A DNA stretch of 64,000 bases from an uncultured Flavobacteriaceae bacterium (lineage in GTDB: Bacteria; Bacteroidota; Bacteroidia; Flavobacteriales; Flavobacteriaceae), in the NCBI GenBank assembly GCA_947497245.1, contig CANMFO010000001.1, positions 1,364,001 to 1,428,000 of the forward strand, in the 5' to 3' direction. Position 1 is the first letter of the stretch. The number at the start of each line of letters is the position of its first letter. Of the stretch, positions 1,872 through 24,722 are shown one piece after another. A program made the position numbers and the translations under genes. A model generated the notes under the pieces. That model was not told the DNA's origin. It did not search any database and saw nothing but the letters and a program-made list of their open reading frames with translations.

Positions 1872-4800
1872 CTACAATAGGTTCATTAAATCGTCCAGTT
1901 CGTCCTGGCTCAGTCCAGCTTCCGGAAAATCTGAAGGCGTATAATTCCCTACGCCCTCGGAGGTGCAATGCGCAATAAGCTTTTCCAAGTTAACAAGGTA
2001 ATCTTCGACCAACGCCAATAGTTTCGATTCTTCATACGCTTCCGTGCTATAGCTCCAATCGACATGAAGCAGCCCATCGCCCACATACGCATTGATTTCC
2101 AATGCATATGTCCGTTCACTCAAAGCATCCCGATTACCATGGGACTGAAATTCATAGCTAAGTTCAGAATTTTCATACGATCCACCAACATTTCCCAGAT
2201 AGTTGAATACCATCTGTGGATCTTGCTTTAAAAAATCTGGCCTTGCATTTTGATCGGAAAGGTATTTAAGAATGCCGAAACCTATACCGTCATTGGGAAT
2301 GGCCCGTAAATGTTCCTTTACCATTTTTATGGCACCACCGATATCTGTAGTTTCCGGACTTCGGAGCTTGAGCGGAAAGAAAGATGTAAACCAGCCTATG
2401 GTATTGGAAACGTCGATCTCGGCATAGTTCATGGTCCGTCCGTGCCTTTCAAGTCCGATGCAACAGTGTTCCAGTCCTTCGCGCTCCCGGACCGTAATCA
2501 TCAATGCGGTTACCAACAAATCCTCAACTTTGGTGTTATAGGCTTCATTGGCACCGCTCAATAGCAGCTTGGACATCGCTCCCCCAAGCTTGCTTGAATG
2601 TGTTTTAATGTCCCGTTCTCTGTAGATTTGGGTATTTTTCCCAAAGTCCGTGGACAAGGCTGTATTGTTGTTCTGCGCCTCCCAGAAAGGCAGTTCCTCC
2701 CGAATTTTGTCCGATTGGGCAATTTCCAACAATTGTTCGCCCCAGGCCCTTATGGAAGTGGTCTTTGGCTTGAAATCTATTTTTTGGCCCGATTTCAACT
2801 GTTCCATCCCAAGGGAAAAGTCACTGAATATTGCATTCCATGATACCATATCCACCACCAGGTGGTGTGCGACAAAAAATACTTGGTTGGTTTGGGTTTG
2901 GCCGCAGTCAAAATAGACCATCCTGAACAAATTGTCTTTTCCAAGATCACATTGCCCTTGCAATGTGGCCATGGTCCCGTCTATTTTCCGGTTCTGTGCA
3001 GATCGGTCCGGAAGGTCTCCAACATCGAACCGATAAAAACACTTTAGAGCGTCCAAAGGCAAAACCCTTGCCTTCCATGTATTGTCGATCCTGACAAAGC
3101 TCAGGCGAAGGGCATCGTGGTAGGCCACAAGCTCGTTGGTAAGCCTCTCCAATACCGAAAAGTGTACGGATCCGCTATTGGAAATACGGACGATCTGATT
3201 CCAAAAATGTGGAGCTGCCTGATGGAGCTCAAAAAACCAATGCTGAATGGGGGTCAATGGGACTTCACCCACCACATTTTCAGTTTTCAGTTTGCTCACA
3301 TCCTCCGTTTTGGCAAAGAGCGCCAATTCTGCAATCGTTTGATTTTCAAATAATTGATTGGTCTTTAACTGTAATCCAGCTTTTCTGGCCTTCGCCATGA
3401 TCTGGATGCTGGAAATGGAGTCGCCCCCCAATTCAAAAAAGTTGTCCCGCGTGCCAATGGGAGAGATCTTCAGTACCTCTTCCCATATCGCGGCCAATTT
3501 TTTCTCAATTTCATTTTTGGGATGTTGAACCGCCCCCCGATCTTTGGTCATCAGGGACCTTTTTACGCTTCCCAAAGCCTTTTTATCCACTTTTCCATTC
3601 GGCAGTTTGGGAAACGATTCCAAGGGAATGAAATGGGCGGGGACCATGTAAGTGGGAAGATGGTCCACCAGGTACGATTTCAAGACCGCTTTGTCGAACG
3701 TACTTCTTGGAACAATATAGGCCACCAAATGTTCCGGTTTGGTGGAAACCGCATTCATTCCACCATCAGTTTGTACATGCTCCACCAACACCACCGTTTC
3801 ATCGCAAAGGCCGCTTTCCAGTATCGTCTTTTCAATCCCATCCAACTCAATGCGGAACCCACGGATTTTTACCTGCTGGTCCATACGCCCGAGGAATTCC
3901 AAGTCGCCCTGTTCATTGTAACGCCCTCTATCCCCGGTCTTATAAAGCCGATCGGTCTTCAGACCTTTAAAAGGGGTTTGGACATAGGCCTTTTTCGTAA
4001 GATCGGGTCGATTTAAATAATGTCCGGAGAGTCCTGGGCCTCCAATATAGATTTCCCCGACAGCGCCCAAGGGAACAGGTTCGAGCGAATCGTTGAGCAA
4101 CATAATGTTGGCCTTGGCGACCGGTTTCCCGATCGGTACGGAATCCCCTTTTTGGTTTCTGGATACCTCATGGGCGGTACACCAAACGGTTGCCTCTGTG
4201 GGGCCATATTCATTGTACAGGCCGGCTTTTGGCAATTTTCCGAAATGGAGGGGGCCCAAAGTGGCCGGACATGCTTCCCCTGCAACAATTGCAGTGGTCA
4301 GGCCCTGTAGTTTAGAAGATGTGCCATATTCCAACACTAGCTGGTACAGCGAAGGAAGCATCAGGGTATGTGTTACTCCATTGGAGAAAACAAGGTCGCA
4401 AAGCTTTTCAATATCCTGTTCGATTCTTTTTTCACTGACCACCAATTTTCCTCCCGTGCACAGGGTCCAGAAAATACCTGCCTTCGAACTGTCAAAAGCA
4501 ATGGAGGACAGTAATAAAAATGCCTGTGGGTCGCCATCATAAAATGTCAATCGACCTTCGGTGGAATTGATGATATTCCTGTGGGTGATGGGTACCCCTT
4601 TTGGGTTGCCCATGCTCCCAGAGGTGTAGATCACATACGCTAGATTTTCCCCATTGGAATCGGGGAAGCTCATCTCAGCGTTGCTTTGGTCTTCAAATGC
4701 ACCCTCGATGGAGATACGTTTCCCATCAAAATCCCCAAAATTTGAGGTGCTCGTTTTCTGCGTCAGGACGATGTTCACTTTGGAATCCTTCAACATAAAG

Positions 4801-6545
4801 TGAACGCGTTGGGCCGGATATTCCGGATCAATGGGCAAATAGGCGCAGCCTGCTCTCAATATGGCCAATAGGCCCACGATCATCTCCAAAGATCGATCTA
4901 CGTAAAGGCCCACAATTTCGTTTCTCCCTTTTGTCAGTCCGAGGATCGTTCCGGCAATCGCATCGGCACGTTCCAACAATTCGCTATAGGTGATTGTCTC
5001 ATCACCAAAGACCACGGCTGTGGCCGCAGGGTTCTTTTTACCGCTATCGACGATCAGGTCGTGGATTCCCTGATATTTCGCAAAAGGTCCTTCATTTTCA
5101 GGGGTATCGGAAAAAAAAAGGGCTTTCTCCCGAGGCGTTTGCATTTTTAGGTCCGAAATAAGCCGATTTGGATCTGCGACGACATTTTCAAGCAACAGCC
5201 TTAGGTGCTCTTGAAATTGGTCTATGGTGGAGCCCTTGAACAGATCCGTGGCGTATTCCAAGACAGATGACAGCTTTCCGTCCCTTTCGGTCAGGTAGAG
5301 CGTAAGATCAAATTTGGAGACCCCAGGGTCGTAAAGTGGGTCGTCGATCAGCTGCACATCTTTCCCAAAAGAAGGTACCTCAGAATCGGGATTGTACACA
5401 AACATCACCCGAAAAAAAGGATTGACGGCCAGCGATCTTTTTATTTTCAGTTCCTTGACCAACAGATTAAAGGGGACATCCTTGTGAAGGAATGCGTCCA
5501 AGGCAACGTTTTGTACTTTCCGGGCGAATTCCGCAAAAGATTCATCGGCATCCACCTCCGATTTCAGCACCATGGTATCTATAAAAAACCCAAAAACACC
5601 TTCCAAGCTCCCCTGGTCTCGGTTGGAAATGGGCGAGCCCACCAAAAGCGTCCTTTGACCGGTATATTTATAAAGAAACACATAGTACACCCCAAGCAAC
5701 AGAACAAATGGTGTGACCCCCAGTTCCCTGGCAAGTTCCTGAACCTTTTTTGAAAGATCTTCCGGATATTCCGCTATGTTGAGCCGGCCCCTATACGTTG
5801 GCACGGCGGGAGGCGCGTGATCGGTATGCATCCCCAGCACCGGGATTTCACCAGAGAGCTTCTCCCTCCAATAAGCCAACTGGGCACCAAAATCGCTTTG
5901 CCCCTGTTGCCAATAGCTGTAATCGGAAAAATCGATTTCGGAGGTTTTGGCTTCCATTTCCCTTCCTTCGCACAAGGCCCGGTAGTGCGCCCCGAGTTCA
6001 TCTTTTAAAATATCCATGGACCATTCATCGGCAATGATATGGTGCATCGTCAAAAAGAGCACGTGCTTGGAACTATTGAATTTCAGCAACGAAATCCTTA
6101 ATAAGGGCGGTTCCGCCAAATTAAAATGGGTAGCTGACTGTTCGGACATGACCGTCCTGGCCCTATCCTCTGCCACTTCTTCGGGCAACGGGCTTAAATC
6201 GATTTCGTCCACCTCCGCTTCCCTACCGTCCCAGATTTTCATAATGGGCCCATCTGCCTCCATGGGATAGCTCGACCTGAGCAATTCATGATCGGCGATA
6301 ATCTGCCGAAGGCCCCTCTTTATATGCTCCACCTCGAGCGTTCCCAAAAAAGTATAGTGGGCCGAAATGTTGTAAAAAGGATTCTTTGGATAAAGGCCCT
6401 GTAAAAACCATAGCCTTTGTTGCCCACTCGATAAAGGAATGACCGCCCCCTTCGGCGCCTTGGGAATAAGCGGGGAAGCAGCTTCTTTTTTCTCCCTATT
6501 TTTCCATTTACTTAAAAGGGAGGAGGAGGATTTTTCATTTTTCAT
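1872..6545 (-). CDS. Nonribosomal peptide synthetase, C-A-T-E module
   Basis: This is a complete chain-extending module that adds one residue and converts it to the D form. The condensation domain covers roughly residues 35-470, with HHIIADE near 168. The adenylation domain covers about 490-1010 and has the ATP-binding loop YTSGSMGNPKG, a FDSSKAG core segment and NEYGPTEATVW. The carrier domain has GGDSISS with its serine near 1041. The last 430 residues are an epimerization domain rather than a second condensation domain, because they carry TPIQHWFFE, HHLVVDMVSW (near 1227), GWFTSFFP and FNYLG motifs. I chose the ATG at 6545: the longer frame from 6593 would overlap the upstream gene's 3' end by 29 bases, whereas 6545 sits 19 bases past its stop. 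The substrate was not predicted. Confidence 0.92.
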   Translation of the reverse strand: MKNEKSSSSLLSKWKNREKKEAASPLIPKAPKGAVIPLSSGQQRLWFLQGLYPKNPFYNISAHYTFLGTLEVEHIKRGLRQIIADHELLRSSYPMEADGPIMKIWDGREAEVDEIDLSPLPEEVAEDRARTVMSEQSATHFNLAEPPLLRISLLKFNSSKHVLFLTMHHIIADEWSMDILKDELGAHYRALCEGREMEAKTSEIDFSDYSYWQQGQSDFGAQLAYWREKLSGEIPVLGMHTDHAPPAVPTYRGRLNIAEYPEDLSKKVQELARELGVTPFVLLLGVYYVFLYKYTGQRTLLVGSPISNRDQGSLEGVFGFFIDTMVLKSEVDADESFAEFARKVQNVALDAFLHKDVPFNLLVKELKIKRSLAVNPFFRVMFVYNPDSEVPSFGKDVQLIDDPLYDPGVSKFDLTLYLTERDGKLSSVLEYATDLFKGSTIDQFQEHLRLLLENVVADPNRLISDLKMQTPREKALFFSDTPENEGPFAKYQGIHDLIVDSGKKNPAATAVVFGDETITYSELLERADAIAGTILGLTKGRNEIVGLYVDRSLEMIVGLLAILRAGCAYLPIDPEYPAQRVHFMLKDSKVNIVLTQKTSTSNFGDFDGKRISIEGAFEDQSNAEMSFPDSNGENLAYVIYTSGSMGNPKGVPITHRNIINSTEGRLTFYDGDPQAFLLLSSIAFDSSKAGIFWTLCTGGKLVVSEKRIEQDIEKLCDLVFSNGVTHTLMLPSLYQLVLEYGTSSKLQGLTTAIVAGEACPATLGPLHFGKLPKAGLYNEYGPTEATVWCTAHEVSRNQKGDSVPIGKPVAKANIMLLNDSLEPVPLGAVGEIYIGGPGLSGHYLNRPDLTKKAYVQTPFKGLKTDRLYKTGDRGRYNEQGDLEFLGRMDQQVKIRGFRIELDGIEKTILESGLCDETVVLVEHVQTDGGMNAVSTKPEHLVAYIVPRSTFDKAVLKSYLVDHLPTYMVPAHFIPLESFPKLPNGKVDKKALGSVKRSLMTKDRGAVQHPKNEIEKKLAAIWEEVLKISPIGTRDNFFELGGDSISSIQIMAKARKAGLQLKTNQLFENQTIAELALFAKTEDVSKLKTENVVGEVPLTPIQHWFFELHQAAPHFWNQIVRISNSGSVHFSVLERLTNELVAYHDALRLSFVRIDNTWKARVLPLDALKCFYRFDVGDLPDRSAQNRKIDGTMATLQGQCDLGKDNLFRMVYFDCGQTQTNQVFFVAHHLVVDMVSWNAIFSDFSLGMEQLKSGQKIDFKPKTTSIRAWGEQLLEIAQSDKIREELPFWEAQNNNTALSTDFGKNTQIYRERDIKTHSSKLGGAMSKLLLSGANEAYNTKVEDLLVTALMITVREREGLEHCCIGLERHGRTMNYAEIDVSNTIGWFTSFFPLKLRSPETTDIGGAIKMVKEHLRAIPNDGIGFGILKYLSDQNARPDFLKQDPQMVFNYLGNVGGSYENSELSYEFQSHGNRDALSERTYALEINAYVGDGLLHVDWSYSTEAYEESKLLALVEDYLVNLEKLIAHCTSEGVGNYTPSDFPEAGLSQDELDDLMNLL

Positions 6546-6564
6546 AGCCTTTGGGGTAAGTCCT

Positions 6565-7836
6565 TTATTCCGGCAGGGGAGGTAGTATTCCAATTTTTCT
6601 CAAAATCTTCCCACCCATTGTACGGATATTTTCATCCAAGCGGATATCAATATCGAAAACACGCTCCACAAACCAATATAAAGAAACAATTATTAGTACC
6701 ACGGAGAGGTACAATAGGATTTTGGGATATAGCCGCGACTTGCGAATGAGATAGAGCACTGGAAAAATTAGGGCGATTATCACCACCTGACCAATTTCAA
6801 CCCCGATGTTAAATCCCAATAGCGACAGGGTAAGAAATTCACCCGTAACCCCCAGCTCTCCCAGTACCGTGGCAAACCCAAAACCGTGGAACAGTCCAAA
6901 TACAAAAGCGATCACCCAGTCTTTACCCTTAAATATCGGCCGAATATTGTGGTAGGCCGCAAGACCTATCGATAAAGCTATGATGGACTCCACCAATCGC
7001 GAGGGCAGGTTTATTATGTTCAACGACGCCAAGCTTAAGGTAATGGTATGTGCAATCGTAAAAAAGGTGACCACCTTAAGGATATAGATAAAGGCAGGTC
7101 TGAATTTGTCCACCGCCTGCCAAGCGGTCCCACTGGTCATAAGGCCTTGCTGTCCCTTCCGGGGCGTGCTGGGGTTGGTCCGTATTCTTCGTACCACCGA
7201 AGGGAGGATCAAGGCCAGCAAGAACAAAATGTGATCCAATCCGATCCATATGTGCCAAACACCCTGTTTGATCATCGCCTTAAAGCCTTTCCAAACGGAG
7301 GTATCGGTAAGTGATAGGGTCTTGGTCCAATCGTTTTCGGTAAAATCCAGAGCGATTATCGCCTCATTATTGATCATCCCGGCTTTCCAGTTGTATTCGA
7401 TACACAACAGGTTGACATGGGAAGGGTTTTCTTCCATGAAGGGTTTAAAAGTAACTTCTAGGTTATCCGGTACGGTCTCCGAATTTTCCAAATAAAAATG
7501 AAACACTATAAAAGCCCCAAAGAGCGTTTTCAGTTTTTCCGTATCGGTAAAGACAATCTTATAATTGCCATAAACAGATGAAAATTGGGTGTTCTCAAGA
7601 ATATAGGCCCTAATTCTGTCCTGATGCTTCAAAACACTTTCCAGGTCAGGATATTTGTCTAGATTGAGTCCAAACTCCTCGTTCAAATCATTGACATGGA
7701 TATCGAAATGGCCCTCAATTCCCTCCGTTTCATAGATTCTTAAATAAATGATGCTATTATCGCGCTGATGTGCCGATGCCAGTACCGGAATCAGGATTAG
7801 GAGAAACAAGGCGACTCTGGTGGCCAGTTTTTTCAT
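6565..7836 (-). CDS. HupE/UreJ-like membrane protein
   Basis: A 423-residue protein with an N-terminal signal peptide (ending near ASA, residue 22), an exported N-terminal domain of about 180 residues and a C-terminal membrane domain. The membrane domain carries the HupE/UreJ signatures: a GVWHIWIGLDHILF segment near residue 200 and FGLFHGFGFA further on. HupE and UreJ relatives are linked to nickel or cobalt supply for hydrogenase and urease; neither enzyme is in this window. The gene is the first of the minus-strand NRPS operon and diverges from the free-standing adenylation gene. With the TonB receptor it suggests that the peptide product serves metal uptake. That role is inference; the family assignment rests on the visible histidine motifs. 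Confidence 0.8.
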   Translation of the reverse strand: MKKLATRVALFLLILIPVLASAHQRDNSIIYLRIYETEGIEGHFDIHVNDLNEEFGLNLDKYPDLESVLKHQDRIRAYILENTQFSSVYGNYKIVFTDTEKLKTLFGAFIVFHFYLENSETVPDNLEVTFKPFMEENPSHVNLLCIEYNWKAGMINNEAIIALDFTENDWTKTLSLTDTSVWKGFKAMIKQGVWHIWIGLDHILFLLALILPSVVRRIRTNPSTPRKGQQGLMTSGTAWQAVDKFRPAFIYILKVVTFFTIAHTITLSLASLNIINLPSRLVESIIALSIGLAAYHNIRPIFKGKDWVIAFVFGLFHGFGFATVLGELGVTGEFLTLSLLGFNIGVEIGQVVIIALIFPVLYLIRKSRLYPKILLYLSVVLIIVSLYWFVERVFDIDIRLDENIRTMGGKILRKIGILPPLPE

Positions 7837-8178: not shown

Positions 8179-9744
8179 ATGATCTACAATTTGGCACAAA
8201 TAATCGAGCAGGGCGCATCCGATTTTCCAGAAAGGGAAGCCTACCGCTGTATGGATGACTCCATCACCTTTGCGGAGCTCCACCAAAAATCCGATCAATT
8301 GGCAATGTATTTGATCCGTGCGGGAGTAAAAAAGGGGGATAGGGTCGCCGTTTATATGAACCGTTGCCTCGATGCTCCCGTGGCCGTTTTCGGTATTTTG
8401 AAAGCCGGGGCCGCCTATGTACCCATGGATACTTTTGCGCCCTTGTCCCGCAGTCTGTACATTTTGGAGGATTGCGATATAGAACATATGGTTACCTCCC
8501 CTTCCCAAAGGAAAAAAGTCGCTTCGCTCATAAAAGATGCCCCATTTTTGAAATCCGTTATAGGCATCTCGGAAGTGTCCGATGGGAAATCCGTGGCATG
8601 GGAACGGGTATTCTCAAACCCGGTGGAGGGGTTTGGCCCTCCCAGGGTACTGGAACAGGACTTGGCCTTTATACTCTACACCTCGGGTTCCACCGGAACC
8701 CCAAAGGCCATGATGCATACGCACAACAGCGCACTGAGTTTGGTAAAAGTGGTGGGGGATCTATTCGGGTTCCATCCAGAGGACCGGGTGGGGATTTTTG
8801 CCCCCTTACACTTCGATATGTGCATGTTCGGTTACTTCATTGCACCCTACGTCGGAGCCGTGGCCATCATTATACCGGATGCCCATTTTAAAATGCACGC
8901 CAGCCTGTCGGCCCTGGTGGAAAAGGAAAAAATTACAATTTGGTACTCTGTACCTTATGTGCTGACCCAAGTGTTGCTGAGGGGCGAGATCGAAAAACAT
9001 GATTTCAGTGCACTGCGCTGGGTACTGTTTGCCGGAGAACTTTTTATCCTAAAGCACCTTCGCGCATTGATGCTGCAATGGCCCCACGCGAAATTCGGCA
9101 ATCTATATGGGCCTGCGGAAACCATCGCATGTACCTATTATGTCGTTGAAGAGCCCCCAACTATCGGGGAACCCATTCCCATAGGTACGGTCTGGGGCAA
9201 TACGGAGTACAAAATATTGGATTCGGAAGACCGTGTGGTCGCGCCCGGTGATACTGGGGAACTGGTGGTTCGGTCCGCCTCTACCATGCTCGGGTATTGG
9301 AAAAATGAAGAACTGACCGAAAAAGCTTTTTACAAGCTCAACATATCCCCTGGGTATGATCATTTATACTACCGGACCGGGGACTTGATGCGGGAGAACG
9401 ATAAAGGGGAACTCATGTTCATGGGCCGGAACGACAGACAACTCCAGCTAAGGGGCCACAGGGTCGAACTGGACGGAATAGAACACACCCTGTTGAAAAA
9501 TGAAGATGTTGAAGAGGCCGCGGTCGTCGCGATAGAAAGGGACGAGGACCATACGGAACTTGTCGCAGTCGTAAAGCCGGCATCAGGTTCGAGGCTAAAC
9601 CCCAAAGATTTAAGCCTGTTTTGTAAGACTGCAATGCCATCTTATGCCGTACCACAGTCCATATTGGTCCGAAATGATTTTCCAAGGACCAGCTCCGGCA
9701 AAATAGATAGAAAAGAAATACAGAAGGAACTAACATCGCTATGA
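8179..9744 (+). CDS. Free-standing amino acid adenylation enzyme (DltA-like)
   Basis: A 521-residue single adenylation domain of the ANL superfamily with no fused carrier. It activates an amino or aryl acid as the acyl-AMP and should load the small carrier protein encoded directly downstream. Visible motifs are the P-loop TSGSTGTPKA (near residue 170), a PLHFDMC core segment, YGPAET, YRTGD and the C-terminal SSGKIDRKE with the catalytic lysine. Its stop overlaps the start of the carrier gene by four bases (ATGA), so the two are translationally coupled. Free-standing A plus carrier pairs usually prepare a starter or a specially modified building block. No dehydrogenase or hydroxylase that would modify the loaded residue is present here. 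Confidence 0.9.
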   Translation: MIYNLAQIIEQGASDFPEREAYRCMDDSITFAELHQKSDQLAMYLIRAGVKKGDRVAVYMNRCLDAPVAVFGILKAGAAYVPMDTFAPLSRSLYILEDCDIEHMVTSPSQRKKVASLIKDAPFLKSVIGISEVSDGKSVAWERVFSNPVEGFGPPRVLEQDLAFILYTSGSTGTPKAMMHTHNSALSLVKVVGDLFGFHPEDRVGIFAPLHFDMCMFGYFIAPYVGAVAIIIPDAHFKMHASLSALVEKEKITIWYSVPYVLTQVLLRGEIEKHDFSALRWVLFAGELFILKHLRALMLQWPHAKFGNLYGPAETIACTYYVVEEPPTIGEPIPIGTVWGNTEYKILDSEDRVVAPGDTGELVVRSASTMLGYWKNEELTEKAFYKLNISPGYDHLYYRTGDLMRENDKGELMFMGRNDRQLQLRGHRVELDGIEHTLLKNEDVEEAAVVAIERDEDHTELVAVVKPASGSRLNPKDLSLFCKTAMPSYAVPQSILVRNDFPRTSSGKIDRKEIQKELTSL

Positions 9745-9980
9745 AAGACAAAATTATTGCATTCTTAAAAAACGAGATTTCGGAGGACCCCAATGAAGAA
9801 ATAGATCCACGGGACGATCTGTTGAACTCGGGAATCGTGAATTCCATGGACATGATCCAACTGGTACTTTTTATTGAAAAGGAGTTTCAATTGGTGGTAA
9901 GTCCCGGTGATATGACCGTCGAGAACTTCACAAGTGTCGAGAGTATCATCGATTTCATATCGAAAAAACATCTGGAATAA
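9741..9980 (+). CDS. Acyl/peptidyl carrier protein
   Basis: A 79-residue acidic carrier protein of the DltC/ACP fold. The phosphopantetheine attachment serine is residue 35, in GIVNSMD, where many carriers have an aspartate directly before the serine. It is encoded in a four-base overlap with the free-standing adenylation enzyme and is its likely cognate partner. The loaded residue would then be passed to the condensation domain at the start of the next protein. No phosphopantetheinyl transferase gene lies in this window. Confidence 0.88.
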   Translation: MKDKIIAFLKNEISEDPNEEIDPRDDLLNSGIVNSMDMIQLVLFIEKEFQLVVSPGDMTVENFTSVESIIDFISKKHLE

Positions 9981-10021: not shown

Positions 10022-13000
10022 ATGAAGATAGCACTCACAGCAAGCCAGTTGTCCCTGTGGACCGGACAGAAAATAAATCCGGAGTCCCCGTTGTACAATA
10101 CGGCCTATGCTTTCGACATTTCGGGAGACTTAAATGTGGCGCTGTTTCAAAAGGGCTTTCAGTCCGTGGTGGACACTACGGATGCCATGCGCCTAGTTTT
10201 TTTTGAGGAGGACGGCAGACCGTTTCAAGAAATTCGGCCCGCATGCGGGGGCGAATTGGAATTCATTGATTTTTCAAACGGTCCCGACCCACTAAATATA
10301 GACGATTGGTTGTTAAGTCGAACGCAACGAATGCTCAATATATCGGAAAAGGTTTTTGATGCGGCCCTGCTCAAAGTAGGTAAAAATCAATATACGTGGT
10401 TTCTCAACATGCACCATTTGGTGACCGATGCGGTTTCCTTCAAGGTCATCTTTCAAAAAATGGCAGATTTCTACCAGTCCCTGTTGACCGGTGGAACCGT
10501 GAAACTGGCAATGGACGGGCCCTCCTATGCCGATTTCGTTGAATTCAAATTAAAGGAAGAGCGAAATGGACCGGCGAAGGCTTCCGATACGGACAACTCC
10601 AACATACCTAAAAAAAAACCGGTATTCTATGGCCGTACCGCAGAGAAGAACAACACGGCATACACGCGCATGGCAGTTCCCTTGGGATCGGATAGGACAA
10701 AAAAAATCCGTGACTTGGCAAAAAACCCGGAAATAAGGAGCCTGACAGAGCACTTAACCCGTTTTAACATTATAGCCGGTCTGTTGTTCATCTACCTCTT
10801 CAGGGTGAGCGGACAGAACAAATTGGTAATTGGGGCGCCCACACCCAATAGGGTTTCCAAAAAATTCAGCAAGATCGTGGGGTACTGCATCGAAGTTTTC
10901 CCGCTGTTCAATCAAATAGTGGAAAAGGACTCTTTGCTCTCCGTCCTGGAACGGGGCAAACTGGAAATGAACGCCTACCTCAGATTCGCACAGGAAGGCC
11001 GGAACACCCCTGAAATAAGTCGTAACATCAACGTACTATTGAATTATCTGCCCGCTGGTTTTACCGATTTCAACGGATTGGGTACCGTTGCCAAATGGGT
11101 TCATCCGCATCATATGGACAGCAATCATCAGCTGCGCTGTCAGGTATTGGATTATAAAGAGGACGAAGAAATCACCATATATTTCGACCTGAACCATTCC
11201 ACGTTCGACGAGGAGCTTCGGCTAAGGGTTCCCGATCATTTTTTGAATTTGCTGGATGCGCTCCTTGACGATATCCACCAACCGATCGAAAGACCCAGCT
11301 TGCTCTCCGATGGGGAATTGCGGCAACTGACCGCTCCCCCTTCGCTCCCGAAATGGTCACTAAATGATATTGTGGGCCAATTTGAGGCCCTTGCGGGCAG
11401 TACCCCGAATGCTGTTTCCCTCCAGTGCGGTAGCGAAACCCTTACCTATTCGGGCCTGAACAAAAGAGCCAACCAATTGGCACATTACCTAAGGCAAAAT
11501 GGCATAGACAGGGAAAAAAGGGTCGCCCTTTTGTTTTCAAAAAGTACGGCGTACATCGTAGGGGTGCTGGCGGTAATGAAGGCAGGCGGTACCTTCATCC
11601 CCATAACTTCCGACAATCCGGCGGAAAGAATACGGTTCATCGTTTCCGATTCGGAATGTACCTTGCTGTTGACGGAAGAACGTCTGCTCGATAAAACCAA
11701 GCTCCTGTCCGTTCCCATAATTGCGGTGGAAGGGCAAAGGGAAATCATTTCGGAACAGTCTTCGGAAAACTTGGGAGGTTTTCAGGATCTGGACGGTATG
11801 GCCTACATACTCTATACCTCTGGATCTACCGGGAATCCCAAAGGGGTGCTTATTTCACAAAGGGCCTTGTCGAACTATTTGTCCTGGGCCGGCCAGTACT
11901 ATGGCCTGACCCCTGATTCGGTGTTTCCCCTGTTCACTTCCATAGGATTCGACCTTACCATCAGTGCTACTTTTTTGCCCTTGCTAAATGGCGGCAGACT
12001 GTTGATATATCCAGAACCGGCCAAGGGTCCGGATCTCACTTTGTTACAAGTTATTGAGGAGAACATGGCTACGATCATAAAACTTACCCCATCGCACTTG
12101 GCCCTGTTGAATGGTATGGATTTGACAGGTTCCCGTCTTAGCACGATGATCGTAGGTGGCGAGGATTTCAAAACCCCTTTGGCAAAGTCCATTCAAATGG
12201 CATTGGGTGATCAATTGTCCATTTTCAACGAATATGGGCCCACCGAGGCGACCGTGGGCTGTATTGCGGTAAAATTCGACTATAAGGCACATACCGGCGC
12301 CTCCGTTCCGATCGGGACGCCCATTGACAATATGACGGCCTATATTCTTGACCGTTTCCGAAATCCGGTTCCCAAAGGCGTTGTGGGGGAATTATATGTG
12401 GGCGGTGCCGGCTTGGCGCAGGGATATATTGGGCGACAAGGGCCGGGCGATCAAAAATTCGTTGAAGACCCTTTCATATCCGGGGCAAGGATGTATCGGA
12501 CGGGAGATTTGGGCAAGATCAATGCACAAGACCAATTCGAATTTCTTGGCCGAATGGATGAGCAGGTGAAATTAAGGGGCTATCGCATAGAATTGGCCGA
12601 TATTGAAAGTAATCTCACAGACCACCCATCGGTCCGGGACTGTGCCGTGGTCCTGCTTGAAGATCAGCCGCCCATTCCCGAGAGGGAGGTGGTACACTGT
12701 ATCGAGTGCGGCCTGCCCTCCAACTATCCCGATACCGATTTCGATGCCCATGGGATCTGTAATCTGTGCAGTGCGTTCAAGGATCATAAAAACCAGGTGG
12801 ACCGATACTTCAAAACAGAGGATGCCCTCAAGGAACTGCTCCTTTCCAAACGGGAGCTGAGTCCGCACTATGACTGTTTATCGCTCTTAAGTGGTGGCAA
12901 GGACAGCATGTATATCCTCGCCCAACTGATCGACATGGGGCTACGGGTCCTGGCCTTCACCTTGGACAACGGCTATATTTCGGAGCAGGCCAAAGGGAAC

Positions 13001-14146
13001 ATTGACCGAATCGTGAAAAAATTAGGAGTGGACCATATCTACGGTGGTACCGCCCATATGAACGAAATCTTTGTCGACAGTCTGAAAAGGCACCAGAATG
13101 TTTGCAACGGCTGCTTTAAGACCATTTATACATTAAGTGCACAGATTGCGCTGGAGAAGGAAATTCCCTTTATTGTAACGGGCCTTTCCCGCGGCCAGTT
13201 TTTTGAAACCCCGTTGACGGAAGAACTTTTCTCCGACGAAAATGTGGACATCGCGAAAATTGATACTACCATTTTAGAGGCTCGAAAACTCTATCACCAG
13301 GAAGAGGATGCCGTAAAGTCGATGTTGGACGTTTCCACATTCCAGGAAGTGGACACTTTCGACAAGGTCCAGTTCGTTAATTTCTACCGATACAGCGATG
13401 TAAGCCTGGAAAAAAAGTTGGCTTTTTTGAAGGAAAAGGTAGGATGGGCACCCCCTGCCGGCACAGGTCGGTCCACCAACTGTCTGATCAATCAGGTGGG
13501 CATCCATGTCCACAAAAAACAAAAAGGCTATAGCAACTATTCTTTTCCCAACAGTTGGGACGTACGCCTGGGCCATAAGACCCGAAACGAATCGCTGGAG
13601 GAGATCAATGAGGTAATCGACGAACCCGAAGTGCTCAGGATCATGGCGGAAATAGGGTACGATGAAGTAGATCCGACTTTTGATGCCGATGCAAAATTGG
13701 TTGGCTATTACACGGGAAACCAGACCCTTTCCGACAAAACTCTCCGCCGTTTCATGGCCGAGCGATTGCCCGCCTATATGGTCCCCTCACGGTTCAAGCA
13801 TCTGGAGGAAATGCCCCTTACAAAAAATGGAAAGGTCGATAAGACGGCTTTAAAGGGCTTGAACGAGGTCCAGCTTTCCATGGAGGTGCCGTTTACCGCT
13901 CCCCGGAATGAAATAGAGGAGCTCCTGGCGGAGATATGGGGGGACGTCCTAAAACTGAAAAAACTAGGGGTCCATGACGACTTTATAACATTGGGCGGAC
14001 ATTCATTGGCCGCCATCAGGGTAACCTCGCGGATAAACGAACAGTTGGACCTCGGCCTGCCCTTGAACAAAATTTTTGAACTGCCCACGATTGCGGGCTA
14101 TGCCAAATATATAGAGGATACACTGATCAAATTGATGGAGGAATAG
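10022..14146 (+). CDS. NRPS, C-A-T with a PP-loop domain inserted in the A domain
   Basis: A 1374-residue synthetase. Residues 1-430 are a condensation domain with HHLVTDA at 131-137, where alanine replaces the usual final glycine. The adenylation domain starts near 440 (TSGSTGNPKG near 600, NEYGPTEATVG, YRTGD) and reaches the A8 motif (GRMDEQVKLRGYRIELADIE) at about 843-862. It is then interrupted by about 330 residues: CIECG (Cys893, Cys896), GICNLC (Cys913, Cys916), the PP-loop SGGKDS at 957-962, and CNGC at 1028-1031. The A domain resumes with LPAYMVPSRF near 1249 and NGKVDKTAL near 1268. A carrier domain ends the protein, with GGHSL and Ser1328. The insert matches the alpha-ANH ATP-pyrophosphatase superfamily and most resembles N-acetyl-sugar amidotransferases (WbuX/WbpG type). 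The A8-A9 junction is the usual site of methyltransferase insertions. Confidence 0.93.
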   Translation: MKIALTASQLSLWTGQKINPESPLYNTAYAFDISGDLNVALFQKGFQSVVDTTDAMRLVFFEEDGRPFQEIRPACGGELEFIDFSNGPDPLNIDDWLLSRTQRMLNISEKVFDAALLKVGKNQYTWFLNMHHLVTDAVSFKVIFQKMADFYQSLLTGGTVKLAMDGPSYADFVEFKLKEERNGPAKASDTDNSNIPKKKPVFYGRTAEKNNTAYTRMAVPLGSDRTKKIRDLAKNPEIRSLTEHLTRFNIIAGLLFIYLFRVSGQNKLVIGAPTPNRVSKKFSKIVGYCIEVFPLFNQIVEKDSLLSVLERGKLEMNAYLRFAQEGRNTPEISRNINVLLNYLPAGFTDFNGLGTVAKWVHPHHMDSNHQLRCQVLDYKEDEEITIYFDLNHSTFDEELRLRVPDHFLNLLDALLDDIHQPIERPSLLSDGELRQLTAPPSLPKWSLNDIVGQFEALAGSTPNAVSLQCGSETLTYSGLNKRANQLAHYLRQNGIDREKRVALLFSKSTAYIVGVLAVMKAGGTFIPITSDNPAERIRFIVSDSECTLLLTEERLLDKTKLLSVPIIAVEGQREIISEQSSENLGGFQDLDGMAYILYTSGSTGNPKGVLISQRALSNYLSWAGQYYGLTPDSVFPLFTSIGFDLTISATFLPLLNGGRLLIYPEPAKGPDLTLLQVIEENMATIIKLTPSHLALLNGMDLTGSRLSTMIVGGEDFKTPLAKSIQMALGDQLSIFNEYGPTEATVGCIAVKFDYKAHTGASVPIGTPIDNMTAYILDRFRNPVPKGVVGELYVGGAGLAQGYIGRQGPGDQKFVEDPFISGARMYRTGDLGKINAQDQFEFLGRMDEQVKLRGYRIELADIESNLTDHPSVRDCAVVLLEDQPPIPEREVVHCIECGLPSNYPDTDFDAHGICNLCSAFKDHKNQVDRYFKTEDALKELLLSKRELSPHYDCLSLLSGGKDSMYILAQLIDMGLRVLAFTLDNGYISEQAKGNIDRIVKKLGVDHIYGGTAHMNEIFVDSLKRHQNVCNGCFKTIYTLSAQIALEKEIPFIVTGLSRGQFFETPLTEELFSDENVDIAKIDTTILEARKLYHQEEDAVKSMLDVSTFQEVDTFDKVQFVNFYRYSDVSLEKKLAFLKEKVGWAPPAGTGRSTNCLINQVGIHVHKKQKGYSNYSFPNSWDVRLGHKTRNESLEEINEVIDEPEVLRIMAEIGYDEVDPTFDADAKLVGYYTGNQTLSDKTLRRFMAERLPAYMVPSRFKHLEEMPLTKNGKVDKTALKGLNEVQLSMEVPFTAPRNEIEELLAEIWGDVLKLKKLGVHDDFITLGGHSLAAIRVTSRINEQLDLGLPLNKIFELPTIAGYAKYIEDTLIKLMEE

Positions 14147-14160
14147 CAAATCAAAACCCT

Positions 14161-14625
14161 ATGGAAAAAGGCCTTGTATTGAAATTTGGGACTTCGACCG
14201 CCAAACGGTTGGCTTTGCTGATGGGCATCTGCTATCTCATAAATCCATTGCAGCGTCCGCTGAATTTTATTTTGCACGAGGCCGTAACCATCTTCGAGTC
14301 TCCCAATGGGGTATTGGGGCACGAAGTCGCTTCCGCAGCGAAAGGCTCTATTGAAAGGCACGAACAGGGACACCGTACTATGGAGATTCGGCAAGCCCAT
14401 AATTTCGTGGATCTGGTCAGTTCGCTTTTTGAGGCTTCCGAAGAGAACGAACCCCCGGGCGATCCCTATCCGGAAACCCTAAAAATCGATAAACACCTGA
14501 CCACACTGGTGGTTTCGGTGGAAAACAACATCTCCCTTATCCGGTCATATGACCACAACGGGCATGAAAACAAAGTAAGGAACGGCCATCTTCAAAAATT
14601 GAAAAAACCTCCGCGCGGCACATAG
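14161..14625 (+). CDS. Small membrane-associated protein upstream of TonB receptor
   Basis: A 154-residue protein that I cannot assign to a named family. A hydrophobic segment at about residues 17-40 is followed by histidine-containing motifs (LHEAV, GHE, RHEQGH), an acidic stretch near 95 and a basic C-terminus with a DHNGHE motif near 135. It begins 14 bases after the NRPS stop and precedes the TonB receptor, so it belongs to the same transcript. Small histidine-bearing proteins of this layout sit before metal-related TonB receptors in other Bacteroidota (from memory, unverified), which would fit a metal-handling accessory. The frame stays open after its TAG for another 43 codons, so the C-terminus may be truncated. 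Confidence 0.55.
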   Translation: MEKGLVLKFGTSTAKRLALLMGICYLINPLQRPLNFILHEAVTIFESPNGVLGHEVASAAKGSIERHEQGHRTMEIRQAHNFVDLVSSLFEASEENEPPGDPYPETLKIDKHLTTLVVSVENNISLIRSYDHNGHENKVRNGHLQKLKKPPRGT

Positions 14626-14776
14626 CCACCACTTCGTCCGCGTACGCCCAGGAACCCAATCCTGGGAACCATCGACATGGACGCGCAAATTTCCAATTTA
14701 ATCTACGGTCCTTGTGGCCACGGTCCAAGTTTTGGGCGTGGTGCGCATTGGGCGTAATAAACCAAAAATCAATACG
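14626..14776 (+). other. Leader between the small protein and TonB receptor
   Basis: This 151-base stretch holds a 7-base-pair hairpin, CCCAGGA (14647-14653) with TCCTGGG (14660-14666), not followed by a T run. It also holds a 26-codon frame with ATG at 14677 and stop at 14755-14757. That frame is in phase with the preceding 154-residue gene and encodes a peptide rich in G, H and aromatic residues (YGPCGHGPSFGRGAHWA). It may be a separate microprotein, the lost C-terminus of the upstream gene, or chance. Confidence 0.3.
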
Positions 14777-17008
14777 ATGTTAAAATATATAATCCAAACC
14801 GTTTGCCTTGTCCTCTGTGGAAGCCTGAGTGCCCATGAATTGAGCGGCACCGTTTTTTCGGAAGACCATGTGCCCCTGGATGGGGTCGGTGTATACAACA
14901 AGACCACGGGCGGGTACACCTATTCCAACGTCTCGGGGTATTTTGAACTCGACGACATCTCGGTCGGCGACATCATACACTTTTACAGTCTCGGCTACAA
15001 GAACAAGGAAATCACCATTACGGAAGCGCAATTGGACGGTACCCTCAATATTGTGCTCGAAGAATCCGCGGTGTCGCTCGAACAAGTGGTCCTGGTCTCC
15101 AAGGTAAATGCCCTCAGCAATTTTGTAAATGTTGACGTAAAGGCGAATCCCGTAAAATCATCACAAGAAATCCTTCGAAAAATACCAGGTCTGATCATCG
15201 GCCAGCATGCGGGGGGTGGAAAGGCTGAGCAAATTTTTCTAAGGGGTTTTGATATCGACCACGGGACGGATATCTCGATCAATGTGGATGGTCTCCCTGT
15301 CAATATGGTATCACATGCCCATGGCCAGGGATATGCCGATATGCATTTCATCATCCCTGAAACCATAGACAATGTGGATTTTGGAAAAGGGCCCTACTAT
15401 GCGGACCGGGGCAATTTCAATACCGCAGGCTATGTGGACCTTCGCCTGAAAAAGATAATTGACAGGAACGTGGTGTCATTGGAAGCGGGCCAATTCAATT
15501 CGCTTAGGGGCCTGGCCATGTTAAAAGTAATGGAAAGCGACCTTAGCAACGCCTACGTGGCCACCGACTTTATGCTGACCGATGGCTTTTTTGAGTCCTC
15601 CCAGAATTTCAACCGATTCAACATACTGGGAAGATACCATCACAACAACCAAAAAGACCAAGATCTGAGTCTGTCCATTTCCCACTTTCAGAGCAAATGG
15701 GACGCATCGGGGCAAATACCGCAACGCACGGTGGACCAGGGTCTGATCGGTAGGTTTGGTGCCATTGATGACACGGAAGGGGGAAACACCAGCCGATCGA
15801 ACCTATGGATCAACCACGGTAAACAGCTCGATGAACATTCCAAACTGACTTCCACAGCCTATATTTCCAAATACGACTTTGAACTGTTTTCGAACTTTAC
15901 TTTTTTTCTCGAGGATCCCCTGAATGGAGATCAGATCCGGCAGAAGGAGAATCGCACCGTGATCGGTATGGATACCCAATACGAGCGGTCGCTCCATGTG
16001 GGCGGTCACGATTCGCAATTGAAGTACAAGGCGGGCATCGGTTTCCGTTATGACGACGTGAACGAGGTACAGCTCTCGAGAACCCTCAACCGAAAGACTC
16101 TGTTGGAGCGCCTGGCCTATGGCAATGTTGACGAGATGGATGTGTTTTCATTTTTCGATCTCACCTATAAGCACGACCATTGGACCTTTGTTCCCGGTGT
16201 TCGCCTGGACTATTTCCGTTTCGACTATGTGGATCTACTCACCGAGACCTATGACAATAAAAGCGAGGACAAGCTGTTCCTAGGCCCTAAATTCAACATA
16301 ATCTATTCTCCCTCCCAACAACTACAGCTCTTTCTTAAGAGCGGTATGGGCTTTCACTCAAACGACACCCGTGTAGTGACCGCCCAAGGTGGGGAGGACG
16401 TCCTTCCCGCGGCCTACAGCGTAGATTTGGGCCTGATCGCGAGGCCCTCGAACAAATTGGTCGTGAACGCGGCGCTTTGGAGTCTGTTCCTGGAGCAGGA
16501 ATTCGTTTATGTGGGTGATGCGGCCATTGTGGAGCCTAGCGGAAAAACACGGAGGTATGGTGTGGATGTGGGGCTTCGGTACCAAATGACCGATTGGTTC
16601 TATCTTAACGGGGACCTCAATTATACCCATGCCCGGAGTGTCGATGGACCGGATGGGCAGGATTATATTCCGCTTGCCCCGGACTTCACCTCTTCGGGAG
16701 GTATTTCGTTCCGGGACCTGAAGAATTTTTCCGGAGGGGTCAATTATCGCTTTGTCAAAGATCGGCCCGCCAACGAGGACAATTCCATCGTGGCCGAAGG
16801 CTACTTCGTAACCGACCTGAATCTCAACTATGCCCATAAAAATTGGACTTTGGGCCTAATCGTGGAAAATTTGTTCGACACGGAATGGAACGAGACCCAA
16901 TTCGCTACGGAAAGTCGCCTGCTGAACGAACCAAATGGTTTTGAGGAAATCCATTTTACACCGGGGACCCCTTTTTACGTCCGAGGGAAGCTAACGGTAA
17001 GTTTTTAG
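14777..17008 (+). CDS. TonB-dependent outer membrane receptor
   Basis: I chose the ATG at 14777 because it begins a signal peptide (MLKYIIQTVCLVLCGSLSA); an ATG at 14714 would add 21 non-hydrophobic residues. The mature protein of about 725 residues starts with a carboxypeptidase-regulatory-like beta domain, then a plug domain with the striking segment VNMVSHAHGQGYADMHF, then a beta-barrel that ends in aromatic-rich strands and a terminal phenylalanine (KLTVSF). It should import a ligand across the outer membrane using TonB-ExbBD energy. Its place at the end of the NRPS operon makes the peptide product, alone or with bound metal, the most likely ligand. The histidine-containing plug motif is in keeping with a metal-related substrate, but that is inference. 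Confidence 0.88.
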   Translation: MLKYIIQTVCLVLCGSLSAHELSGTVFSEDHVPLDGVGVYNKTTGGYTYSNVSGYFELDDISVGDIIHFYSLGYKNKEITITEAQLDGTLNIVLEESAVSLEQVVLVSKVNALSNFVNVDVKANPVKSSQEILRKIPGLIIGQHAGGGKAEQIFLRGFDIDHGTDISINVDGLPVNMVSHAHGQGYADMHFIIPETIDNVDFGKGPYYADRGNFNTAGYVDLRLKKIIDRNVVSLEAGQFNSLRGLAMLKVMESDLSNAYVATDFMLTDGFFESSQNFNRFNILGRYHHNNQKDQDLSLSISHFQSKWDASGQIPQRTVDQGLIGRFGAIDDTEGGNTSRSNLWINHGKQLDEHSKLTSTAYISKYDFELFSNFTFFLEDPLNGDQIRQKENRTVIGMDTQYERSLHVGGHDSQLKYKAGIGFRYDDVNEVQLSRTLNRKTLLERLAYGNVDEMDVFSFFDLTYKHDHWTFVPGVRLDYFRFDYVDLLTETYDNKSEDKLFLGPKFNIIYSPSQQLQLFLKSGMGFHSNDTRVVTAQGGEDVLPAAYSVDLGLIARPSNKLVVNAALWSLFLEQEFVYVGDAAIVEPSGKTRRYGVDVGLRYQMTDWFYLNGDLNYTHARSVDGPDGQDYIPLAPDFTSSGGISFRDLKNFSGGVNYRFVKDRPANEDNSIVAEGYFVTDLNLNYAHKNWTLGLIVENLFDTEWNETQFATESRLLNEPNGFEEIHFTPGTPFYVRGKLTVSF

Positions 17009-17131
17009 GACCGAACAGGTTTGATCCATGGTGTCCCATGGCTTTCCCGAATTGGGGGAGCCATGGGTAACATCAGTGGCGGCGGGGAACCAATACCTGC
17101 AAAATCCCTATTTTTGCAGCAAATCCATAGG

Positions 17132-18535
17132 ATGCTTCCAAACGAACCCATCATCGCCCTTGCCACGCCTTCCGGTGCCGGTGCCATTGCGGTCGTGCGC
17201 ATTTCGGGAAAGGACGCCATAGCGATGGCCGGTCCCTTTTTCAAATCGGTCCACGACAAGAACCTGGTCGAGCAAAAAAGCCATACGGTACACTTGGGAC
17301 ATATTGTTGATGGGAATCGGTACATCGATGAAGTTTTGGTGACCCTTTTTAAAGGGCCCCATTCCTATACTGGGGAAGATGTGGTGGAAATTTCCTGCCA
17401 CGGGTCCCCGTACATCCAACAGCAGATCCTCCAATTGTTTCTCAGGAACGGATGCCGTGCCGCGGATGCAGGGGAATTTACCCTACGGGCCTTTTTAAAT
17501 GGTAAATTGGACCTTAGCCAGGCAGAGGCCGTGGCCGACCTGATCGCCTCGGACAATGAGGCAGGCCACCAGGTGGCTTTGCAGCAAATGCGCGGTGGCT
17601 TCAGCAACGAAATCAAAAAATTACGGGAGGAACTCTTGAATTTTGCCTCCCTCATCGAACTGGAACTCGACTTTGCCGAAGAGGATGTGGAGTTCGCGGA
17701 CCGGGGACAGTTCAAGGAACTACTGATCAAGATCCAGAATGTGCTCAAGCGCCTGATCGATTCGTTCGCTGTGGGCAATGTGATCAAAAATGGCATTCCC
17801 GTGGCCATTGTGGGCGAACCGAACGTGGGCAAATCCACTCTTTTGAACGCCTTGTTGAACGAGGAACGTGCCCTAGTCTCGGAAATCGCGGGAACGACCC
17901 GGGATACGATCGAGGATGAAATCAGTATTGGAGGGGTCGGTTTTCGCTTTATGGATACCGCGGGAATCCGCAAAACGGATGATGTTGTGGAAGGTATGGG
18001 CATTCGGCGCACCTTCGAAAAAATCGATAAGGCACAGGTCGTCATTTTTTTACTGGATGCCACAACCTTCAAAACGGGAAGGTCCGGGCTCCGGTCTGAG
18101 ATCGAAAAAATCGGAAACCGGCATCCGCAAAAACCCATGATCGCAGTGGCCAACAAGATAGATGCGGTCGGCGGTCCGATCAAGACCGAACTGCAAGGGG
18201 TATTGGACGAGATCCCGAGAATCCAAGTGCAGTTGCTCTCCGCCAAGACAGGGGAAGGTGTGGAAGCGCTGAAGGACAAACTTTTGGAATTCATAAATAC
18301 GGGCGCACTTCGAAACAATGAGACCATTGTGACCAACACACGACACTACAGTGCCCTTACCAAAGCCCTGGAGGAGATACAAAAGGTAAAATTGGGGATG
18401 GATTCTGGTGTTTCCGGAGATTTGCTCGCGGTGGATATCCGGCAGGCACTATATCACTTTGGGGAAATCACGGGAGAAATCAGCTCGGAAGATCTTTTGG
18501 GGAACATTTTTGCCAACTTTTGTATCGGGAAATAA
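17132..18535 (+). CDS. mnmE: tRNA modification GTPase MnmE
   Basis: MnmE works with MnmG to install the carboxymethylaminomethyl group on the wobble uridine of certain tRNAs. From the ATG at 17132 (MLPNEPIIALATPSG) the protein has 467 residues, close to the usual 450-460; the ATG at 17021 would add 37 unrelated residues. Visible are the N-terminal tetrahydrofolate-binding domain, the GTPase P-loop GEPNVGKST near residue 227, the DTAGIR switch motif, the NKID specificity motif and the invariant C-terminal CIGK. It is a housekeeping gene not related to the NRPS cluster. Its last five codons form the core of the att repeat of the following island, and integration has kept the reading frame intact. 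Confidence 0.97.
   Translation: MLPNEPIIALATPSGAGAIAVVRISGKDAIAMAGPFFKSVHDKNLVEQKSHTVHLGHIVDGNRYIDEVLVTLFKGPHSYTGEDVVEISCHGSPYIQQQILQLFLRNGCRAADAGEFTLRAFLNGKLDLSQAEAVADLIASDNEAGHQVALQQMRGGFSNEIKKLREELLNFASLIELELDFAEEDVEFADRGQFKELLIKIQNVLKRLIDSFAVGNVIKNGIPVAIVGEPNVGKSTLLNALLNEERALVSEIAGTTRDTIEDEISIGGVGFRFMDTAGIRKTDDVVEGMGIRRTFEKIDKAQVVIFLLDATTFKTGRSGLRSEIEKIGNRHPQKPMIAVANKIDAVGGPIKTELQGVLDEIPRIQVQLLSAKTGEGVEALKDKLLEFINTGALRNNETIVTNTRHYSALTKALEEIQKVKLGMDSGVSGDLLAVDIRQALYHFGEITGEISSEDLLGNIFANFCIGK
18521..18535 (+). repeat. attL core, 15-base direct repeat
   Basis: TGTATCGGGAAATAA encodes the last four MnmE residues and its stop codon, and is repeated exactly at 32566-32580. The flanking bases differ on both sides, as expected for an att core. 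Just inside the element, short ATTTGG repeats at 18547-18552 and 18557-18562, spaced by ten bases, could be integrase arm sites. Confidence 0.85.
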
Positions 18536-21309: not shown

Positions 21310-21311
21310 AA

Positions 21312-23813: not shown

Positions 23814-23889
23814 TTTATTGGATATTTGAATTAAACATTCAAAATTATTCTTAATTGAAATCATTCTTTGTTCCAATTAAGGATGATGT

Positions 23890-24447: not shown

Positions 24448-24453
24448 ATTCAG

Positions 24454-24711: not shown

Positions 24712-24722
24712 TGTTTTTGTAT

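What the first reader, a model, noticed from the sequence alone, without database searches (positions are those of the whole stretch)
12690..13690. PP-loop ATP-pyrophosphatase domain inside an NRPS adenylation domain
The sequence shows about 330 residues placed between A8 (residues 843-862) and A9 (near 1249), with four cysteines in a CxxC...CxxC arrangement at the front, SGGKDS at 957-962 and CNGC at 1028-1031. A8-A9 is a known insertion site, but the usual guests are methyltransferases. PP-loop enzymes adenylate a carbonyl and then deliver sulfur or nitrogen (TtcA, ThiI and Ncs6 thiolases; WbuX/WbpG amidotransferases; alpha-ANH enzymes of thioamide pathways). Inference: this synthetase converts the activated or carrier-bound residue into a thioamide, amidine or similar group during assembly. 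I know of no described enzyme with this architecture, though I cannot search.
Basis: partly seen in the sequence, partly recalled or inferred. Interest (0 to 1): 0.88.

Follow-up and report, generated by a model that had tools for sequence, protein, structure and literature searches.

The report
Asparagine-dehydrating domain inside peptide synthetase
A flavobacterium's peptide-making enzyme carries, inside its asparagine-activating part, an extra ATP-using domain of a kind already known from the antibiotics cystobactamid and albicidin, where it turns asparagine into a nitrile or an isomer; the likely new point is that this domain seems to hold an iron-sulfur cluster.

Summary
Window 10022-14146 (+) encodes a C-A-T synthetase of 1374 aa with a PP-loop domain of about 330 residues between A8 and A9. 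The claim of novelty is wrong: the architecture is published as the AMDH (aminomutase / amide dehydratase) domain of CysH and the alpha-ANH-like extension of Alb04. On CysH it converts carrier-bound L-Asn to beta-cyano-L-alanine or iso-Asn (PMC7966384, PMC8949500). The window insert is 51% identical to that of an X. albilineans A[PP-loop]-T protein, taken here as Alb04. All 79 insert-bearing A domains examined carry an Asn-type code, against 0 of 83 insert-free ones in the same stretches. Dehydration (or isomerisation) of the Asn amide is therefore favoured over thioamide or amidine formation. One point I found in no listing: all 81 inserts examined keep CxGC plus GRSTNC, a triad like the [4Fe-4S]-binding CxxC-C of TtcA/NcsA/LarE/CtaC, while CysH was reported dark brown with no CxxCxxxC motif. 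New member of a known kind; the Fe-S hypothesis is the part worth testing.

The parts
10022..14146 (+). NRPS, C-A[PP-loop]-T, 1374 aa
12674..13690 (+). AMDH-type PP-loop insert between A8 and A9 (about residues 885-1222)
   Evidence: boundaries approximate, from the conserved block of alignment A1
12698..12769 (+). N-terminal CxxC...CxxC (probable zinc ribbon), residues 893-916
   Evidence: complete in 80 of 81 proteins
12890..12907 (+). PP-loop SGGKDS, residues 957-962
   Evidence: 81 of 81
13103..13114 (+). CNGC, residues 1028-1031, first two cysteines of the putative [4Fe-4S] triad
   Evidence: CxGC in 81 of 81; aligned with C..C of MmLarE 8cnz
13466..13483 (+). GRSTNC, residues 1149-1154, third cysteine of the putative triad
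   Evidence: GRSTNC in 81 of 81
11816..12592 (+). A3 to A8 of the adenylation domain, specificity residues DLSKIGEVG (Asn-type)
13766..13843 (+). A9-A10 of the same adenylation domain
8179..9744 (+). stand-alone adenylation enzyme, just upstream on the same strand
9741..9980 (+). stand-alone carrier protein, 79 aa, overlapping the stop of the A gene
14161..14625 (+). small protein with no Pfam or NCBIfam match; similar frames beside several flavobacterial relatives
14714..17008 (+). TonB-dependent receptor
6565..7836 (-). HupE/UreJ-type membrane protein, divergent
   Evidence: similar protein in 35 of 44 relatives' stretches of 20 kb or more
1872..6593 (-). NRPS C-A-T-C (last domain probably epimerising, HHLVVDMVSW, by eye)
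   Evidence: sequence

Best explanation
The insert is an AMDH-type domain, as in CysH (cystobactamid) and Alb04/AlbIV (albicidin). The A domain adenylates L-Asn and loads it on the downstream T domain. The insert then binds ATP at SGGKDS, activates the side-chain amide oxygen as an AMP (or phospho) ester, and eliminates it to leave carrier-bound beta-cyano-L-alanine, with isomerisation to iso-Asn as the alternative outcome. Shown here: architecture, Asn-type code, homology to the X. albilineans protein, conserved motifs. Shown by others for CysH: dehydration and isomerisation depend on the domain. Inferred: that this protein does the same; that dehydration dominates, since no TauD-type hydroxylase was found in the genome (that CysJ belongs to that family is recalled from its likeness to SyrP); and that the CxGC...GRSTNC triad binds a three-cysteine [4Fe-4S] cluster with an open iron, acting as Lewis acid or base beside the PP-loop.
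For: 51% identity over 359 alignment positions to the X. albilineans A[PP-loop]-T protein, with A, PP-loop, A C-terminal part and carrier domain in the same order. Asn-type code in 79 of 79 insert-bearing A domains against 0 of 83 others in the same stretches (many rows are close relatives, so not independent). CysH with L-Asn loses 18 Da, CysH without the domain does not; deletion of the domain abolishes cyano-Ala and iso-Asn products. Gross et al. [quoted passage not shown] Fold neighbours of the AF2 model (mean pLDDT 86.4) include the WbuX-type protein 8wex (best), [4Fe-4S] TtuA and MmLarE, YcfA, QueC and nitrile synthetase ArtA. Triad in 81 of 81, its CxGC aligned with the C..C of [4Fe-4S] MmLarE, absent from 3 of 3 WbuX-type proteins aligned. 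CysH is dark brown.
Against: No product is known for this cluster. The CysH sequence itself was not available to me; the comparison is with the X. albilineans protein, whose name Alb04 is my assignment. The specificity residue at position 239 is Ser in the window (Thr in most). The third cysteine lies 124-130 residues after the first of CxGC (126 in the window), against 91 in MmNcsA (C142, C145, C233), and was not aligned with any solved structure. The retrieval patterns contained CNGC and SGGKDS, so the conservation of those two motifs is partly built in; GRSTNC is not. The closest family and fold match is an amidotransferase, not a dehydratase.
Confidence: 0.78

Rival explanations
1. NRP thioamide synthetase: the insert transfers sulfur through a [4Fe-4S] cluster to a carrier-bound amide, as stand-alone CtaC does in closthioamide biosynthesis.
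For: CtaC is an Fe-S alpha-ANH enzyme acting on carrier-bound peptides (PMC6772006). The insert has a CxxC...C triad of that type, and TtuA, YcfA and LarE are fold neighbours. A thioamide would suit a metal-binding product beside a TonB receptor and a HupE-type protein (inference).
Against: The characterised homologue with this architecture dehydrates or isomerises Asn. The link to Asn-coded A domains points to the side-chain amide of Asn, not to backbone amides. No sulfur-donor gene was recognised among the cluster genes that I annotated.
Confidence: 0.08
2. Mainly an Asn isomerase (aminomutase) making iso-Asn in this cluster.
For: CysH's domain makes iso-Asn, in larger share when CysJ hydroxylates first, but some also without CysJ.
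Against: No TauD-type hydroxylase in the genome at E 0.001; no iso-Asn albicidin is known according to Gross et al..
Confidence: 0.12
3. Amidotransferase like WbuX: Asn amide to amidine with ammonia.
For: Best NCBIfam match of the insert is WbuX and the best fold match is 8wex.
Against: Score well under the WbuX cut-off (127 of 203 bits), as is the X. albilineans insert (148 bits), whereas two complete WbuX-type proteins score over it (214 and 359 bits) and lack the triad. No HisH/HisF-type ammonia supplier was recognised among the cluster genes that I annotated, whereas the WbuX gene on the Roseovarius plasmid has them next door.
Confidence: 0.03

Closest known systems
AMDH domain of CysH (cystobactamid NRPS), PMC7966384
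   Same: SGGKD domain inserted in an Asn A domain of a module with a T domain
   Different: CysH is a stand-alone module with CysJ and CysQ partners; here a C domain precedes the A[insert]-T and no such partners were recognised. CysH sequence not compared directly.
Alb04/AlbIV alpha-ANH-like domain (albicidin), PMC8949500
   Same: X. albilineans protein of L093, taken as Alb04: 51% identity over 359 positions, A[insert]-T, Asn-type code, same cysteines
   Different: No C domain in the same protein; different cluster and product
CtaC, Fe-S NRP thioamide synthetase (closthioamide), PMC6772006
   Same: alpha-ANH enzyme on carrier-bound amides; TtcA-type Fe-S motif as stated in the paper
   Different: Separate protein, not in an A domain; makes thioamides; sequence not compared here
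TtcA/TtuA/NcsA and [4Fe-4S] LarE
   Same: PP-loop plus CxxC...C; N-terminal zinc finger in TtuA/NcsA
   Different: Sulfur transfer to tRNA or a cofactor; cysteine spacing differs
WbuX/WbpG N-acetyl sugar amidotransferase (TIGR03573, 8wex)
   Same: Best NCBIfam match of the insert and best fold match
   Different: Insert below the cut-off; the three WbuX-type proteins aligned lack the CxxC...C triad
QueC/ToyM and ArtA ATP-dependent nitrile synthetases
   Same: Weak profile or fold matches; ArtA catalyses amide to nitrile only
   Different: Separate proteins; no A-domain insertion in what I read

Membership tests
AMDH domain (CysH/AlbIV) | Inserted in an A domain (here between A8 and A9) | tested here: met
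AMDH domain (CysH/AlbIV) | Host A domain specific for L-Asn | tested here: met
   Code DLSKIGEVG, one residue from the majority DLTKIGEVG (71 of 79); by code only, not by assay; the Asn reading of the code is recalled
AMDH domain (CysH/AlbIV) | SGGKD ATP-binding motif | tested here: met
AMDH domain (CysH/AlbIV) | Sequence homology over the full domain | tested here: met
   51% over 359 positions to the X. albilineans protein; CysH itself not tested
AMDH domain (CysH/AlbIV) | Dehydrates or isomerises carrier-bound Asn | not testable with these tools
   needs intact-protein mass spectrometry
Fe-S alpha-ANH enzymes (TtcA/TtuA/NcsA/CtaC/LarE) | PP-loop followed by CxxC and a distant third Cys | tested here: met
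   SGGKDS, CxGC, GRSTNC in 81 of 81; CxGC aligned to 8cnz; third Cys spacing longer than in NcsA
Fe-S alpha-ANH enzymes (TtcA/TtuA/NcsA/CtaC/LarE) | The three cysteines meet at the ATP site and bind [4Fe-4S] | not testable with these tools
   model coordinates not given; no metal analysis possible
WbuX TIGR03573 | Score over the curated cut-off of 203.2 bits | tested here: not met
   123-127 bits
NRP thioamide synthetase | Replaces amide O by S on a carrier-bound substrate | not testable with these tools
   needs mass spectrometry of the loaded protein or of the product

The most novel reading that the evidence does not exclude
AMDH domains, including this one, are [4Fe-4S] alpha-ANH enzymes: a TtcA/CtaC-type three-cysteine cluster in a WbuX-like fold. 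The cluster has been turned from sulfur transfer to ATP-dependent amide dehydration and isomerisation inside an NRPS A domain, either as a Lewis acid at an open iron or through a transient thioamide that collapses to the nitrile. This would explain the brown colour of CysH and give the unknown mechanism a testable form.
Probability: 0.6. Interest if true: 0.55.

Novelty: new member of a known kind. Interest (0 to 1): 0.35.

Why it matters
The finding itself is a further case of a described domain, so it predicts a modified Asn (probably beta-cyanoalanine) in an unknown flavobacterial peptide. What could matter is the cofactor. Gross et al. left the AMDH mechanism open: they saw a brown protein, found no CxxCxxxC motif, took a radical mode as unlikely and left the metal unidentified. 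If the conserved CxGC...GRSTNC triad holds a TtcA-type cluster, the enzyme may be oxygen-sensitive (inference from LarE and CtaC), and the domain links sulfur-transferring with nitrile-forming PP-loop enzymes. Such synthetases are widespread (the 80 loci span many phyla), and Gross et al. could link none of their homologues to a known metabolite.

Tried and rejected
Considered and set aside: WbuX membership (below cut-off, no triad in the WbuX-type proteins aligned); thioamide or amidine as first choice (see rivals). The Streptomyces NBC_01216 relative (L013) is a PP-loop-Condensation protein, not an insert, and its upstream A-T has another code, so it is not in the Asn count. Of the 80 loci (L060, L097, L104) lack the A3 motif in the frame held and are missing from the code counts; the window and L011 were added, which gives 79. 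A link to pyrrole formation (stand-alone A, carrier protein and acyl-CoA dehydrogenase, as in the Roseovarius cluster) was checked: the window genome has no close copy of that dehydrogenase (best 35%), so none is claimed. Two first paper searches (PP-loop with NRPS; sugar amidotransferase with NRPS) found nothing to the point, because the domain is published under other names.

Structure: AF2 gave a good model but no coordinates, so whether CNGC faces the PP-loop could not be measured; the second aligner was not available.

Corrections made on rereading: the third-cysteine motif was recounted (GRSTNC 81 of 81), the WbuX-type proteins used as contrast were scored (of L010 only the matching 115 residues, 143 bits, under the cut-off), and a hydroxylase search was added.
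Full report
Observation. The open frame 10022-14146 on the + strand encodes 1374 residues with Condensation, AMP-binding, AMP-binding_C and carrier domains, and a PP-loop stretch that Pfam calls QueC-like (20.9 bits, cut-off 22; 23.5 for the insert alone) and NCBIfam calls WbuX-like below cut-off (123 bits for the whole protein, 127 for the insert alone, cut-off 203.2). The insert lies between A8 (848-857) and A9 (1249-1255), with SGGKDS at 957-962 and CNGC at 1028-1031; a third conserved cysteine is C1154 in GRSTNC.

Relatives. In 99 genomes chosen by kinship, the window's own included, 8 had a match at E 1e-10: the window, 5 of 50 of the same family with 65-72% identity and frames of 1380-1417 aa, 2 weak matches (24% and 36%) among 39 of the same order, and 0 of 9 congeners, some of them incomplete. 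That the family is Flavobacteriaceae is inferred: two of the unnamed family genomes have contigs of the same length as those of Wocania and Gelidibacter. A tblastn of plasmids gave 12 records; the best three were a Pseudohalocynthiibacter and a Roseovarius plasmid (48%) and a Streptomyces plasmid (39%). In 77 of the 80 an A3 motif lies upstream in the same frame; in L060, L097 and L104 it does not in the frame held.

Known precedent. The X. albilineans locus L093 holds an A[PP-loop]-T protein that I take to be Alb04/AlbIV; the name is my assignment from the review's description (A-T with a 342-residue alpha-ANH-like extension with SGGKD, Asn preferred; PMC8949500, passages). The window insert is 51% identical to it over 359 positions. 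Gross et al. 2021 (PMC7966384; passages, outline and the second part of section 7) named the equivalent domain of CysH 'AMDH', saw loss of 18 Da from loaded L-Asn only when the domain is present, and found that its deletion abolishes the cystobactamids with beta-cyano-Ala or iso-Asn. They state that the homologues they found are all inserted in A domains with Asn specificity. An author correction (PMC8429670, listing only) mends labels of their figure 5. The original albicidin paper (Cociancich 2015) I have not seen. The architecture is therefore described.

Own test of the Asn link. I took nine specificity positions from 162 A domains, found by motif in 82 stretches (80 loci, the first 19 kb of the window, L011). 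All 79 with the insert read DL[TS]K[ILV]GE[VI]G; 0 of 83 without it do. Many rows are close relatives, so this is a strong contrast but not 162 independent cases. That the code means Asn is recalled (tyrocidine) and agrees with Gross et al. The window reads DLSKIGEVG.

Cofactor. In 81 of 81 proteins (80 loci plus the window) CxGC stands 71 residues after the PP-loop start and GRSTNC follows, its cysteine 124-130 residues after the first of CxGC; the N-terminal CxxC...CxxC is complete in 80 of 81. The retrieval patterns included SGGKDS and CNGC, so those two counts are partly circular; GRSTNC was not in them. A profile of 55 inserts aligns its CNGC with the C..C of 8cnz, which the fold search names MmLarE-[4Fe-4S]; the third cysteine lies outside that alignment. 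Three WbuX-type proteins lack the triad: L009 and the annotated one of L011 score over the WbuX cut-off, L010 was scored only in part. In NcsA (and, as cited there, TtcA and TtuA) and in LarE of T. maritima a CxxC plus a distant Cys binds a [4Fe-4S] cluster by three cysteines (PMC10067955 and PMC9283937, passages); CtaC is said to have the same motif (PMC6772006, first of three parts). Gross et al. found CysH dark brown, took this as a sign of a metal, found no CxxCxxxC motif and so thought a radical mode unlikely. I found no paper that assigns a cluster to AMDH in the listings; most subscription journals are not held.

Structure. AF2 on alignment A2: mean pLDDT 86.4, pTM 0.83. Foldseek's best PDB match is the WbuX-type protein 8wex (E 6e-11, TMq 0.57); then, with TMq of about 0.26-0.35, TtuA, YcfA, MmLarE, QueC and the nitrile synthetase ArtA among others. 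The low TM-scores say common PP-loop core, not close kinship. Distances between cysteines could not be measured.

Mechanism. Most likely, Asn is adenylated and loaded by the A domain; the insert activates the side-chain amide with ATP and eliminates to the nitrile. [quoted passage not shown] phosphorylation was proposed for albicidin. Which holds here is open. In CysH prior beta-hydroxylation by CysJ favours isomerisation; the window genome has no TauD-family match at E 0.001, so dehydration is the more likely default. That CysJ would be found by that family is recalled. The role of the putative cluster is inference.

Surroundings. On the + strand lie a stand-alone A (8179-9744), a carrier protein (9741-9980), the NRPS, a small protein and a TonB-dependent receptor. 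Divergently lie a HupE/UreJ-type protein and a second NRPS. Among the 44 of 80 loci with 20 kb or more, 35 hold a HupE-like protein, 28 the TonB receptor, 20 an acyl-CoA dehydrogenase like that of Roseovarius; these are tblastn matches covering 70% or more. The window genome has three HupE-type genes in all and no close copy of that dehydrogenase. The part of the window beyond 25979 was not annotated. The product is unknown; a metal-related role is only a guess from the receptor and HupE.

Verdict. Real, correctly seen, but a known kind; the thioamide idea is not excluded but is second to dehydration. The Fe-S triad is the part a specialist may not have seen.

Noticed in passing
L013:19944-22124 (Streptomyces sp. 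NBC_01216 plasmid): Relative of the insert (39%) fused in front of a Condensation domain instead of inside an A domain; the A-T protein before it has a non-Asn code and an asparagine synthase gene stands upstream.
   Followed up: partly
L014:7704-8852 (Streptomyces sp. NBC_00470 plasmid): Free-standing hypothetical protein with SGGKDS, CWPC and STNC near an acyl carrier protein and a ketosynthase: a possible Fe-S PP-loop enzyme of another pathway.
   Followed up: partly
6565-7836 and relatives: HupE/UreJ-type membrane protein beside AMDH-type NRPS genes in 35 of 44 stretches of 20 kb or more, in several phyla; role unknown.
   Followed up: partly
8179-9980: Stand-alone A plus carrier protein; 20 of 44 relatives' stretches add an acyl-CoA dehydrogenase, as in pyrrole formation from proline (recalled), but the window genome has no close copy of it.
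   Followed up: partly
19155-19541: Fragment of a phage-type integrase after mnmE (17021-18535); the insert has no match in 9 of 9 congeners searched, some incomplete.
   Followed up: no
19534-25979: Metal efflux genes (CusB-like, heavy-metal P-type ATPase, TolC-like) follow the cluster.
   Followed up: no
L093:1-4750: In this X. albilineans record the NRPS frame upstream of the A[PP-loop]-T gene ends and a further piece of a Condensation domain is read in another frame, so that gene looks interrupted here; pieces looked at apart only.
   Followed up: no
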